Origin: Phycisphaerales bacterium
GTDB taxonomy: Bacteria; Planctomycetota; Phycisphaerae; Phycisphaerales; SM1A02
Assembly: GCA_020427695.1 (NCBI GenBank)
Contig: JAGQOG010000242.1
Location: 1-32,658, forward strand
Reading direction: 5' to 3'
DNA length: 32,658 bases
Shown here piece by piece: positions 4,671 through 22,704 of this stretch (within the stretch, counting starts at the first letter, position 1; each line of letters opens with the position of its first letter). Under the pieces are notes generated by a model. That model did no database searches, had not been told where the DNA came from, and saw only the letters and a program-made list of their open reading frames with translations. Made by a program: the position numbers and the translations under genes.

Positions 4671-5849
4671 CTAGCGCGTGAACCCCAGCAGCTCGATGCC
4701 TGCTCTGGCGCGCTTCAACTCGCTCGCTGGCACGGCTTCGATTCCCGCAGCAATCGCATACCTCTTCTCACCGGGATAGAACACGACAATCCGTTCGAGC
4801 CCGAGATCGGCCTGCGCACTCCGAAGCGACGGCGTCATCGTGGGGGCGTCCGATCGCTTGATCTCGACCCCCGCACGCCGACCGTTCTTGACGAGCAGGA
4901 GACCGAGCTCGGCGCCCTGGTGGGTCGCCCAGAAGGAGCACTCGTCAGGCTCGACCCCGTTGATGAGGTCCTCGATGATCCAGCCTTCCCAGGAGGCGCC
5001 CACCTTGGGGTGCCGCAGCAGCGACGCGCGGTTCGTGACCCCAAGCAGCGCGTGGAGAAGTCCGCTGTCGCGAACGTAGACCTTCGGCGACTTCACCTGT
5101 CTCTTGGCGATGTTCGCGAACCACGGTTGAAGTTGGCGCACGAGGAAGAGGTCGCTGAGCAGATCCAGGTACCGTCGCGCCGTAGACTCGCCGACTCCGA
5201 GTGCGCGAGAGAACTGCGCGGCGTTCCAGATCTGACCATGCCAGTGCGCGAGCATGGACCAGAATCGCAGCAGGCCCTGAGCCGGGATCGAGATCCCGAG
5301 CTGCGGCACATCGCGTGCCAGGTAGGTCCGAACGAAATTCCGCCGCCACGCGAGACTGTCCGTAGCCGACCGGGCAAGGTACGAACGTGGGAAGCCGCCT
5401 CGCTCCCAATGACGACTCACAACATTTCCCCGTCCGCGACGGGCGACCTCCTCCAGCGTGAACCCGCCAAGGACAATCGTCTCGATCCGGCCCGCCAGCG
5501 ACTCGCCGGTCTGTCGCAGCAACGATGGCGACGCGCTCCCAAGCACGAGGAACCTCGCCGGCGTTCGCGGCCTGTCCGCCAGCACGCGCAGGATCGGAAA
5601 CAGATCTGGCCGGTGCTGCACCTCGTCGATCACGACGAGGCCCCGCAGAGAACGAAGAGCGACCATCGGCTGCTCAAGTCGTGCGAGGTCCGCTGGATCC
5701 TCCAGGTCGAAGTAGGCGTCGCTGGAGGGATCCACGACCGCTCGCGCGAGGGTGGACTTGCCGCACTGCCGCGCTCCGACCAGGGCGACCACTGGCGCTC
5801 GCTTCAGGGCGGCCTTCAGGCTCGCGGTCGCATGTGATCGAGGGATCAT
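4671..5849 (-). CDS. AAA ATPase with DUF4143 (PD-(D/E)XK-like) domain
   Basis: This 392-residue protein has an N-terminal ATPase domain (AAA_14 type): Walker A GARQCGKST at 25-33, Walker B LVVIDEVQH at 71-79, and a sensor-like LVLGSAS at 101-107. A winged-helix-like segment (about 205-240) follows. A C-terminal DUF4143 domain includes E288 in SWEGWIIEDLI, GAELGLLL and GVEIKRSD (E329, K331), as in restriction-endonuclease-fold proteins. The cellular role of this family is not established. The start at 5849 begins the typical MIPR motif; the upstream in-frame codons run through the inverted repeat at 5862-5904 and are unlikely to be used. Hand-counted lines give 53-60% GC, against about 70% in neighbours, suggesting recent acquisition. 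Confidence 0.9.
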   Translation of the reverse strand: MIPRSHATASLKAALKRAPVVALVGARQCGKSTLARAVVDPSSDAYFDLEDPADLARLEQPMVALRSLRGLVVIDEVQHRPDLFPILRVLADRPRTPARFLVLGSASPSLLRQTGESLAGRIETIVLGGFTLEEVARRGRGNVVSRHWERGGFPRSYLARSATDSLAWRRNFVRTYLARDVPQLGISIPAQGLLRFWSMLAHWHGQIWNAAQFSRALGVGESTARRYLDLLSDLFLVRQLQPWFANIAKRQVKSPKVYVRDSGLLHALLGVTNRASLLRHPKVGASWEGWIIEDLINGVEPDECSFWATHQGAELGLLLVKNGRRAGVEIKRSDAPTMTPSLRSAQADLGLERIVVFYPGEKRYAIAAGIEAVPASELKRARAGIELLGFTR

Positions 5850-5858
5850 GGGTGGCGG

Positions 5859-5864
5859 AGTATA
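5859..5864 (-). promoter_or_regulatory. Probable -10 element of the DUF4143 ATPase gene
   Basis: TATACT on the minus strand, 9 bases before ATG 5849. Its first half overlaps the end of the 43-bp inverted repeat, so anything bound to the repeat would cover the promoter. Confidence 0.5.
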
Positions 5865-5904
5865 CCATGAAAATCCACCATGCGATGGTGGATTTTCATG
5901 GTAT
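5862..5904. repeat. Perfect 20-bp inverted repeat with 3-base centre
   Basis: Bases 5862-5881 are exactly complementary to 5885-5904, with GCG between. The arms contain AAAATCCACCAT, a strikingly AT-rich word in this DNA. The structure could be a palindromic operator, a DNA hairpin, or a hairpin in RNA. Its -10-proximal end overlaps the ATPase promoter. It has no U-tract, so it is not a typical terminator. No second copy was found in the window. Confidence 0.95.
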
Positions 5905-6015
5905 CTCCAGACGGCATCTCGCTTGCACCCACTCCGTCGCAGGCCATCCGTCGTCCGACGACCCATACCACCCAAGACGCGCCCAAGTCGGACACGCACA
6001 CCCGAGGCCGTCCGG

Positions 6016-6030: not shown

Positions 6031-7608
6031 ATGGGCACCAGTGACGCCAAGGCGACTGCGGCCGGTTCCGTCGGGGCCGCAGGATCGACGCCCGGCTGGG
6101 CGTACAGCCCGGCGCCGGAGACCACCGCCGTCGCCATCGCCGATCGATATGGGCTCTTCATCGACGGGGCCTTCGTGGCCCCGCGCAGCCGGCGGTTCTT
6201 CGAGACCGTGAATCCGGCCACCGAGGCGCCCCTAGCGCGCGTTGGGGATGCCGGCGCGGCCGATGTGGACGCCGCCGTTTCGGCGGCTCGACGTGCCTTG
6301 CCGAGGTGGTCGCGCCTGCGGCCATCCGAGCGGGCCGCCTACCTCTTCCGGATCGCCCGGCGCATCCAGGAGCGGGCCCGCGAGTTGGCCGTGCTCGAGA
6401 CGATGGATGGCGGCAAGCCCATCAAGGAGAGCCGCGACTTCGACATCCCGCTTGCCGCGCAGCACTTCTTCTACCACGCGGGCTGGTGCGACAAGCTGCG
6501 GTACGCGTTCCACGGCGAAACACCTCGGCCCGTCGGGGTCTGCGGCCAGATCATCCCGTGGAATTTCCCTTTGCTGATGGCCGCTTGGAAGCTGGCGCCG
6601 GCCCTCGCCTGCGGCAACACCTGCGTCCTCAAGCCCGCCGAGACCACGCCGCTCACGGCCCTGCGCTTGGCTGAGATCCTCGACGAGGTCGGCTTGCCAC
6701 CCGGGGTGGTCAACATCGTGACCGGCGGCCCGGAGACAGGTCGCCATCTCTCGCTGCACCCAAACGTTGACAAGATCGCCTTCACGGGCTCCACGGAGGT
6801 GGGCAAGGCGATCGCCGCCGCGTGCGCCGGCACGCCCAAGCGGCTCACGCTCGAACTGGGCGGAAAGAGCCCGAACATCGTGTTCGCCGACGCGGCACTC
6901 GACCAGGCGGTCGAGGGCGTGGTGTCGGCGATCTGGTTCAACCAGGGCCACGTCTGCTGCGCGGGATCGCGCCTGATCGTGGAGGAGTCGATCCTGGACG
7001 CGTTCATCCGGCGACTCGAACACCGGATGGCCTCGCTCCGCCTCGGCGATCCCCTCGACAAGAACACCGACGTCGGCGCCATCAACTCCCGAGCCCAACT
7101 CGACCGCATCGAGCACTTCCTGACTTGCGGCGAGCGCGAAGGTGCCCGGCGCCACGAGGTGAACGGCTCCGCCCTCCCGACGCGGGGATACTGGTGCCGC
7201 CCCTGCTTCTTCACCGGCGTGCAGCCGAGCCACGCGATCGCGCGGGAGGAGATCTTCGGACCGGTGCTTGCCGTGATGAGCTTCCGCACGCTCGACGAGG
7301 CCGTGCAGCGGGCGAACAACACGCCATACGGGCTGAGCGCCGGCGTGTGGACCGACAAGGGCTCGAAGGCCTTCGAGGTGGCGCGTCGGCTCGAAGCGGG
7401 GGTGGTCTGGTGCAACACCTTCAACCGCTTCGATCCGTCGAGTCCGTTCGGCGGCTACAAGGAGTCGGGCTTTGGCCGCGAAGGCGGGCTCTCCGGGCTT
7501 CGAGCGTACGTGCGCACCGATCGGAGCCCGGCGCGGAGCCCGGCCGCGCGCACCACGAAGTCGCCCGGCAACAACCCGTCCAAGCGCTCCCGACGCGGGC
7601 GAGCCTGA
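6031..7608 (+). CDS. Aldehyde dehydrogenase (NAD-dependent)
   Basis: This 525-residue ALDH superfamily enzyme oxidises an aldehyde to an acid. The catalytic set is complete: PWNFP with Asn178, LELGGKSP with Glu275, and GHVCCAGSR with nucleophile Cys309 by alignment to ALDH2 (GQCCCAGSR). The NAD-binding FTGSTEVGK (251-259) and the EEIFGPV motif are also present. About 35 residues precede the usual ALDH start and a basic, serine/proline-rich tail of about 30 residues follows, so it is slightly long. ATG 6031 is chosen over further upstream codons because it follows a TATCCT element and excludes the ATPase promoter region. A partner ALDH-like gene starts 36 bases after it. With DeoC in the same neighbourhood, acetaldehyde oxidation is a reasonable substrate guess, but that is inference. 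Confidence 0.93.
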   Translation: MGTSDAKATAAGSVGAAGSTPGWAYSPAPETTAVAIADRYGLFIDGAFVAPRSRRFFETVNPATEAPLARVGDAGAADVDAAVSAARRALPRWSRLRPSERAAYLFRIARRIQERARELAVLETMDGGKPIKESRDFDIPLAAQHFFYHAGWCDKLRYAFHGETPRPVGVCGQIIPWNFPLLMAAWKLAPALACGNTCVLKPAETTPLTALRLAEILDEVGLPPGVVNIVTGGPETGRHLSLHPNVDKIAFTGSTEVGKAIAAACAGTPKRLTLELGGKSPNIVFADAALDQAVEGVVSAIWFNQGHVCCAGSRLIVEESILDAFIRRLEHRMASLRLGDPLDKNTDVGAINSRAQLDRIEHFLTCGEREGARRHEVNGSALPTRGYWCRPCFFTGVQPSHAIAREEIFGPVLAVMSFRTLDEAVQRANNTPYGLSAGVWTDKGSKAFEVARRLEAGVVWCNTFNRFDPSSPFGGYKESGFGREGGLSGLRAYVRTDRSPARSPAARTTKSPGNNPSKRSRRGRA

Positions 7609-8529: not shown

Positions 8530-8550
8530 GTCCCGGTTCCCACGCAACGG

Positions 8551-8573
8551 GTGCCACGGCCTTCCAGGCCGTG
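8551..8573. repeat. 23-bp intergenic hairpin repeat, TTCCA variant
   Basis: GTGCCACGGCCTTCCAGGCCGTG. It folds as an 8-bp stem (CACGGCCT/AGGCCGTG) with a three-base loop. It is the first of three copies in the 206-bp gap between the short ALDH-like gene and the convergent GH35-like gene. Confidence 0.85.
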
Positions 8574-8591
8574 TCGAGTGCCACATGTCGG

Positions 8592-8614
8592 GTGCCACGG
8601 CCTTCCAGGCCGTG
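8592..8614. repeat. 23-bp intergenic hairpin repeat, TTCCA variant
   Basis: Exact second copy of the unit at 8551-8573, same orientation, 41 bases downstream. Confidence 0.85.
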
Positions 8615-8647
8615 CCGACGCCGGCGCAACGCTCACTGCACGTTCGT

Positions 8648-8670
8648 CACGGCCAGGATGGCCGTGGCAC
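8648..8670. repeat. 23-bp intergenic hairpin repeat, ATCCT variant, inverted
   Basis: Exact reverse complement of the unit found at 18735-18757 and 22600-22622. It lies opposite in orientation to the two copies just upstream, so the patch as a whole is a larger inverted repeat. Confidence 0.85.
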
Positions 8671-8691
8671 CCCCCGCGTGGCACCCCCCGC
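8664..8691. repeat. 14-bp tandem repeat and related CG-rich words
   Basis: GTGGCACCCCCCGC is repeated head to tail at 8664-8677 and 8678-8691. It is followed by two copies of a CCCCGCGCGATCGCA-like word up to about 8730. It abuts the stop of the GH35-like gene and shows no coding signal. Confidence 0.7.
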
Positions 8692-8735
8692 GTGGTCCCC
8701 CCGCGCGATCGCACCCCGCGCGATCGCACTCCCGA

Positions 8736-22541: not shown

Positions 22542-22602
22542 TCCCCACGGCCGACACGGCCGTGGCACCCTTCGCACCCGCACGCGTTCACGTTCGCGGG
22601 TG
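22542..22602. repeat. 61-bp direct repeat, copy 1, with internal hairpin
   Basis: Identical to 22644-22704 (offset 102). It contains CCACGGCCG-ACA-CGGCCGTGG (22545-22565), a G-C variant of the 23-bp hairpin family. The two copies flank a standard copy of that family and fill the gap between the ECF sigma gene and lgt. Confidence 0.85.
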
Positions 22603-22622
22603 CCACGGCCATCCTGGCCGTG
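22600..22622. repeat. 23-bp intergenic hairpin repeat, ATCCT variant
   Basis: Identical to 18735-18757. It sits between the two 61-bp direct repeats. Confidence 0.85.
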
Positions 22623-22643
22623 CAACCGCGCGCCGGTGCCCGC

Positions 22644-22704
22644 TCCCCACGGCCGACACGGCCGTGGCACCCTTCGCACCCGCACGCGTTCACGTTCGCG
22701 GGTG
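22644..22704. repeat. 61-bp direct repeat, copy 2, with internal hairpin
   Basis: Second exact copy of 22542-22602. Its right end abuts the lgt stop codon, so the hairpins could mark the end of both the sigma-factor and lgt transcripts. Confidence 0.85.

What the first reader, a model, noticed from the sequence alone, without database searches (positions are those of the whole stretch)
5862..5904. Perfect 20-bp palindrome overlapping the promoter of an AAA/DUF4143 ATPase
A 43-bp element with two exact 20-bp arms and a 3-base centre sits just upstream of the ATPase, its end overlapping the TATACT -10 box. It is AT-rich in a GC-rich genome and occurs once in the window. It may be an operator bound by the ATPase's winged-helix segment, a hairpin that feeds its PD-(D/E)XK-like domain, or part of a mobile unit. 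Perfect arms imply recent gain or continuing selection, not drift.
Basis: partly seen in the sequence, partly recalled or inferred. Interest (0 to 1): 0.7.

Follow-up and report, generated by a model that had tools for sequence, protein, structure and literature searches.

The report
Self-linked palindromic operator of DUF4143 ATPases
The perfect palindrome in front of this ATPase gene is one case of a 39-base palindromic DNA site that accompanies the same family of putative phage-defence ATPases across a dozen or more bacterial phyla, most likely an on/off switch through which the protein controls its own gene.

Summary
The palindrome (5862-5904, two exact 20-nt arms, 3-nt centre) sits over the -10 region of a minus-strand AAA_14/DUF4143 ATPase (4671-5849). 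Of 81 elements examined, 77 span exactly 39 nt, and about 50 lie directly 5' of a relative of this ATPase in many phyla. No other gene family recurs beside them. More distant DUF4143 genes carry different palindromes in the same place: 44% of DUF4143 upstream regions versus 3% of other genes. In Dyadobacter and Algoriphagus, one genomic site occurs with ATPase plus palindrome, palindrome alone, or neither; palindromes without the gene tend to decay. This favours a cis-site serving its own gene, best read as an autoregulatory operator bound by the ATPase (inferred, not shown), and argues against a freely mobile palindrome. PADLOC files the family as PDC-S01, a very common but untested phage-defence candidate. 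I found no report of the palindrome. The window's copy has Gly in place of the conserved nuclease Asp (D316), so its nuclease is probably inactive.

The parts
5862..5904 (.). Perfect palindrome, two 20-nt arms, 3-nt centre
   Evidence: 100% complementary; DNA fold
5864..5902 (.). Conserved 39-nt core ACCATGNAAAT-N17-ATTTNCATGGT shared with relatives in many phyla
   Evidence: 77 of 81 elements span exactly 39 nt, 4 span 40
5864..5876 (+). Half-site ACCATGAAAATCC (gene-proximal arm, nearest the -10 and the ATPase start)
   Evidence: conserved in relatives
5890..5902 (-). Half-site ACCATGAAAATCC (distal arm relative to the ATPase)
   Evidence: conserved in relatives
5857..5908 (.). Imperfect outward extension of the palindrome (52 nt, 91% identical to its reverse complement)
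5859..5864 (-). Probable extended -10 box TGG-TATACT of the ATPase promoter, abutting/overlapping the palindrome
   Evidence: sequence; in relatives a TATAAT-like hexamer (at least 5 of 6) lies at the gene-side edge in 15/47 versus 4/47 at the other edge
4671..5849 (-). AAA_14/DUF4143 ATPase (392 aa, PADLOC PDC-S01): AAA+ ATPase, winged helix, PD-(D/E)XK-like domain
4902..4904 (-). Codon 316: Gly where 48 of 48 aligned relatives have the catalytic Asp of the PD-(D/E)XK-like domain

Best explanation
The palindrome is an autoregulatory operator-promoter that belongs to the ATPase gene. Two inverted 12-13-bp half-sites at a fixed 39-nt span cover the promoter of a nearly leaderless gene: the -10 abuts the gene-side arm and the -35 region lies at the palindrome's centre. 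The protein, or an oligomer of it, is proposed to bind its own palindrome and block RNA polymerase, keeping the gene low until a signal (for example invading DNA or a change of ATP state) releases it. Shown: the linkage of site and gene across phyla, the fixed span, the position over the promoter, different palindromes in different clades, and a tendency to decay at sites without the gene. Inferred: that the ATPase itself is the binder (the only gene family shared by all sites) and that binding represses. Not shown: which domain reads the site, and the signal.
For: Genome-wide scan: at least 119 stretches versus about 1 by chance. About 50 of 81 elements lie directly 5' of a P0001 relative, usually 12-15 nt from the start codon. 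Span 39 in 77/81 although 37-41 was allowed. The ATPase is the only protein family found beside all 48 gene-adjacent elements tested. DUF4143 genes overall have strong upstream palindromes in 40/90 versus 7/239 other genes (p = 2e-22; p = 2e-9 for 29 relatives chosen without regard to palindromes). Half-site similarity rises with protein identity. Gene-side -10-like boxes. Intact half-sites at 11/12 sites with the gene versus 5/11 without. Thermus thermophilus TT_P0211, a DUF4143 ATPase, has short palindromes over a TTGTCT-N17-TATCAT promoter, and its RNA rises 6.6-fold when a plasmid is present in Ago+ cells (PMC4406477).
Against: No binding or expression data for any member with this palindrome. 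The winged-helix segment does not predict half-site similarity better than other segments. The window's own -35 is poor. Inner-arm positions 12-16 keep complementarity without fixed sequence, which a simple operator does not require. Four loci have the element on the 3' side, three of them with palindromes on both sides, and about 20 elements have no gene beside them.
Confidence: 0.57

Rival explanations
1. The palindrome is a docking or substrate site for the ATPase-nuclease as an effector: the protein is parked on, or monitors, its own palindrome (duplex or extruded hairpin), and regulation of the promoter is secondary.
For: Near-perfect arms; complementarity kept at positions 12-16 with several pair types (64-83% paired versus 27-44% in shuffles); strong DNA hairpin; protein has a PD-(D/E)XK-like domain (CARF-nuclease hits); nuclease-segment identity predicts half-site similarity at least as well as the winged helix.
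Against: The window protein has Gly at the catalytic Asp but keeps a perfect palindrome. Inner-arm pairing is not kept among Dyadobacter homologues. The fixed position over the promoter is unexplained.
Confidence: 0.18
2. The palindrome is an end or target site of a mobile unit that carries the ATPase.
For: Palindrome-gene-palindrome arrangements in L061, L092, L111; tandem palindromes in Algoriphagus; palindrome-only alleles at the same site in two genera; plasmid homologues next to tyrosine recombinases; wide phylogenetic spread.
Against: 1-3 copies per genome; one 38-nt match in viral contigs; most gene loci have no 3' palindrome; in Dyadobacter the gene region diverges together with its flanks, as in vertical descent followed by loss; palindrome-only copies tend to be degraded; no target duplication seen.
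Confidence: 0.15
3. A separate host regulator binds the palindrome, or the palindrome acts only as a terminator or RNA hairpin.
For: Palindrome-only sites between convergent Dyadobacter genes have arms extended and flanked by A/T runs, like bidirectional terminators; the site lies between divergent genes in the window.
Against: No other gene family recurs beside the sites, and one host regulator with this specificity across so many phyla is unlikely. The palindrome lies upstream of the -10, so it should not be transcribed with the ATPase. No Rfam family at gathering score.
Confidence: 0.08

Closest known systems
PDC-S01 phage-defence candidate (PADLOC; AAA_14 + DUF4143, COG1373-type ATPases)
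   Same: P0001 matches a PDC-S01 model at 4e-88. PMC12988326 describes the family as ATPase fused to a PD-(D/E)XK-superfamily domain, the fourth most common predicted defence system in prokaryotes, with experimental validation pending for most such candidates.
   Different: No palindrome or regulation is mentioned in the passages read. The window copy lacks the conserved Asp of the nuclease-like domain.
Autorepressor operators over promoters (repressor/palindrome pairs; for defence genes the WYL-domain/BrxR-type and RptR repressors)
   Same: Inverted half-sites at fixed spacing covering the -35/-10 region; for defence loci, control by a DNA-binding repressor (titles and abstracts of PMC9122601, PMC12255303; the name BrxR is from my own knowledge).
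   Different: Here no separate repressor gene exists at the locus, so the candidate regulator is the ATPase-nuclease itself. Half-sites are longer, and the arms can be complementary almost to the centre.
Archaeal Walker-type/STAND ATPases (PDB 2qen, P. abyssi) and Cdc6/Orc1 on origin DNA (2qby)
   Same: Among the best overall fold matches of the model; Cdc6/Orc1 is also an AAA+ plus winged helix that binds DNA.
   Different: Only 10-13% identity, TM-score 0.50 (2qen) and 0.29 (2qby). Those proteins were not examined here for a PD-(D/E)XK domain or an upstream palindrome.
REP/MITE-like dispersed palindromes
   Same: Intergenic palindromes; some copies stand alone.
   Different: 1-3 copies per genome rather than many; tied to one gene family.

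Membership tests
PDC-S01 / AAA_14-DUF4143 ATPases | AAA_14 ATPase domain followed by DUF4143 | tested here: met
   Pfam AAA_14 4e-22, DUF4143 2e-39; PADLOC PDC-S01 4e-88
PDC-S01 / AAA_14-DUF4143 ATPases | Intact Walker A/B and winged helix | tested here: met
   G30, K31, D75, E76 invariant in 49 sequences; helical segments 190-233 in a model of pLDDT 93.6; HTH Pfam hits in the Thermus homologue
PDC-S01 / AAA_14-DUF4143 ATPases | Intact PD-(D/E)XK-like core (D316, E329, K331) | tested here: not met
   D316 is Gly in the window protein only; Asp in the 48 others. Family membership stands on the whole-protein matches; nuclease activity is doubtful
PDC-S01 / AAA_14-DUF4143 ATPases | Anti-phage activity | not testable with these tools
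   literature: validation pending for most PDCs (PMC12988326)
Autoregulatory operator | Inverted half-sites at fixed spacing overlapping the gene's own promoter | tested here: met
   39-nt span in 77/81; gene-side -10-like boxes; start codon usually 12-15 nt away
Autoregulatory operator | Site conserved only while the gene is present | tested here: inconclusive
   11/12 intact with gene versus 5/11 without, p = 0.024; p = 0.08 when the loci used as search seeds are left out
Autoregulatory operator | Bound by the gene's own product, changing transcription | not testable with these tools
   no expression or binding data; segment test does not single out the winged helix
Mobile element / REP-MITE | Multiple dispersed copies per genome | tested here: not met
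   1-3 copies in 33 of 34 genomes
Mobile element / REP-MITE | Defined ends with target-site duplication or an empty site lacking the palindrome | tested here: inconclusive
   Dyadobacter and Algoriphagus have sites without gene and palindrome, but no duplication was seen

The most novel reading that the evidence does not exclude
Each DUF4143 ATPase carries a private palindrome that is both its off-switch and its recognition code: the defence effector is parked on its own promoter and is released, and its gene derepressed, when foreign DNA or look-alike structures titrate it. Paralogues in one genome avoid cross-talk by having different palindromes.
Probability: 0.15. Interest if true: 0.85.

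Novelty: new variant of a known kind. Interest (0 to 1): 0.64.

Why it matters
PDC-S01 ATPases are among the most numerous predicted defence genes in prokaryotes (29,494 in bacteria and 9,986 in archaea, PMC12988326), and I found nothing on what they sense or do. A gene-linked DNA site, different in each clade, gives a concrete ligand to test, a way to find promoters and regulons, and a footprint (leftover palindromes) for gene loss. If the effector is its own repressor, it would be a one-gene sensor, switch and effector.

Tried and rejected
Exact 63-nt search in 61 relatives found nothing outside the own genome, because only the half-sites are conserved. Sigma-70 scan found no consensus promoter. 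Rfam gave no gathering hit; weak microRNA-precursor hits on the palindrome are chance hairpin matches. The mobile-repeat idea was rejected on copy number and the viral scan. Palindromes without a gene as operators of other genes: orientations and neighbours show no common pattern. A test of whether winged-helix residues predict the palindrome was negative or uninformative. The -35 signal in the centre is only slightly better on the gene strand than on the other (6/47 versus 3/47 with at least 5 of 6 matches), so I rely on the -10. Recurring neighbours: none except the ATPase; other clusters are read as overlapping or antisense frames of the ATPase, or same-genus synteny. Literature searches for DUF4143, COG1373, PF13635 and palindromes upstream of such ATPases found no report of the element.

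Full report
OBSERVATION. The inverted repeat at 5862-5904 is real: two 20-nt arms, 100% complementary, 3 nt apart, with an imperfect extension to 5857-5908. It folds as single-stranded DNA far better than any of 200 shuffles. It is present once in the held genome. The ATPase (P0001, 392 aa) is encoded on the minus strand from ATG 5849 and has AAA_14 and DUF4143. TATACT at 5864-5859 (minus strand) overlaps the arm and is preceded by TGG, an extended -10. On the other side of the intergenic stretch is a divergent aldehyde dehydrogenase, 6031-7608.

THE ELEMENT IS SHARED ACROSS PHYLA. Homologues in the window's own taxonomic family carry related palindromes at the same place. Titles include Bacteroidota, Gammaproteobacteria, Burkholderiales, Deltaproteobacteria, Planctomycetota, Verrucomicrobiota, Chloroflexi, Spirochaetales, Omnitrophota, Gemmatimonadetes, Hydrogenedentes, Dadabacteria, Binatia and Luteitalea (Acidobacteria). 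In the 80 loci returned there are 81 elements: 77 span exactly 39 nt and 4 span 40. About 49 lie directly 5' of an ATPase related to P0001 (28-66% identity), typically 12-15 nt before its start; four more lie beside gene fragments or remnants (L069, L083, L098, L104), four lie on the 3' side (L058, L061, L092, L111), three are at contig edges, and about 21 have no such gene nearby (the automatic tally misfiles L050, L051, L086 and L100, which one search shows to be 5'). The reversed pattern gives no match in 34 genomes, and the element has 1-3 copies per genome. Of all proteins encoded within 3 kb of 48 gene-adjacent elements, only the ATPase family recurs in all 48. Whatever reads this site must therefore travel with the gene; the simplest candidate is the ATPase itself (inference).

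THE PRINCIPLE EXTENDS TO OTHER DUF4143 CLADES, WITH OTHER SEQUENCES. In 90 DUF4143 genes the best palindrome in the 90 nt upstream scores at least 10 in 40 cases, versus 7 of 239 other genes from the same kind of loci (Mann-Whitney p = 2e-22). For 29 relatives chosen only by protein similarity p = 2e-9. The palindromes differ by clade, e.g. CTTGCAAATTA...TAATTTGCAAG, ACCTTGAAAATCC...GGATTTTCAAGGT, GATTCAAAG...CTTTGAATC, and also between paralogues in one genome (L258, L259 and L261, all from G212). Half-site similarity rises with protein identity. Thermus thermophilus HB27 pTT27 encodes a DUF4143 ATPase that I take to be TT_P0211 by position and annotation. Upstream lies TTGTCT-17-TATCAT, with TGAATGACTATCATTCA over the -10 and TGCCATCTC...GAGATGGCA upstream of the -35. 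The published RNA rise is 6.6-fold with plasmid in Ago+ cells (PMC4406477). That shows the gene is regulated, not how.

ANATOMY. In 47 aligned elements the half-site ACCATGNAAATY is followed by a variable centre. The search pattern fixed part of this, but not positions 7, 12-28 and 33, nor the span. A TATAAT-like box (at least 5 of 6) abuts the gene-side edge in 15/47 versus 4/47 at the other edge; perfect TTGACA at positions 17-22 occurs in 4/47 on the gene strand and 0/47 on the other. Positions 12-16 are complementary in 64-83% of 36 non-redundant elements versus 27-44% in shuffles, with several pair types. That allows pairing, symmetric reading, or repair templated by the other arm. Among close Dyadobacter homologues the inner pairing is not kept. 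The window's arms (18 of 19 possible pairs in the core) are at the top of the range.

ONE SITE, THREE STATES. In 48 Dyadobacter genomes the region between two convergent genes was recovered by flanking DNA. It holds palindrome plus ATPase (L186, L189, L191, L192, L193, L197, L199, L207), palindrome without ATPase (L187, L188, L190, L194, L195), or neither, with the two genes almost abutting (L196, L198, L200 and others). Algoriphagus shows the same three states at another site. Both half-sites are intact at 11/12 sites with the gene and 5/11 without (p = 0.024; 6/7 versus 4/10, p = 0.08, without search seeds). Elements without a gene are therefore best read as relics, some perhaps reused as terminators (Dyadobacter arms extended and flanked by A/T runs). 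Insertion beside a pre-existing palindrome is not fully excluded. Palindrome-gene-palindrome loci and plasmid homologues beside tyrosine recombinases keep a mobility rival alive, but copy number and the near absence from viral contigs (one 38-nt match) speak against it.

THE PROTEIN. The AlphaFold model is confident (pLDDT 93.6). Structure matches are the Walker-type ATPase 2qen, Apaf-1, Cdc6/Orc1 on DNA, 8bob (titled as the maltose system), and Card1/VC1899-type nucleases. The conserved C-terminal pattern D316...E329-x-K331 is PD-(D/E)XK-like. The window protein alone among 49 has Gly at 316, so its nuclease is probably inactive, unless this is an assembly error. PADLOC classifies the protein as PDC-S01, an abundant defence candidate; validation is pending for most such candidates (PMC12988326).

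MECHANISM AND LIMITS. Best reading: an autoregulatory operator over the promoter, bound by the ATPase. Steps shown: linkage, fixed span, promoter position, clade-specific sequences, tendency to decay without the gene. Steps inferred: binding by the ATPase, repression, release by a signal. A test of whether winged-helix residues predict the palindrome did not single out that domain.

Noticed in passing
window 4902-4904 (codon 316 of the ATPase): Gly replaces the Asp found in all 48 aligned relatives at the catalytic position of the PD-(D/E)XK-like domain; probably a nuclease-dead copy or an assembly error.
   Followed up: partly
L061, L092, L111: ATPase gene flanked on both sides by palindromes of the same kind, about 1.2 kb apart.
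   Followed up: partly
L216, L217, L218 (plasmids): Plasmid-borne DUF4143 ATPases lie next to tyrosine recombinase genes, one of them also beside repC.
   Followed up: no
L047:7508-7965: Three different long palindromes within about 460 bp and no ATPase nearby; two resemble palindromes of different DUF4143 clades.
   Followed up: no
window 8535-8695 and 22545-22672: Repeated GGGTGCCACGGCC...GGCCGTG inverted repeats at two separate places in the window.
   Followed up: no
L043:3789-3823: A stretch of about 35 bp next to the Algoriphagus element matches elsewhere in several Algoriphagus genomes; a separate small repeat.
   Followed up: no
L309:21074-21170: Thermus thermophilus DUF4143 ATPase (taken to be TT_P0211): palindromes over its probable promoter; gene reported 6.6-fold up with plasmid in Ago+ cells.
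   Followed up: partly
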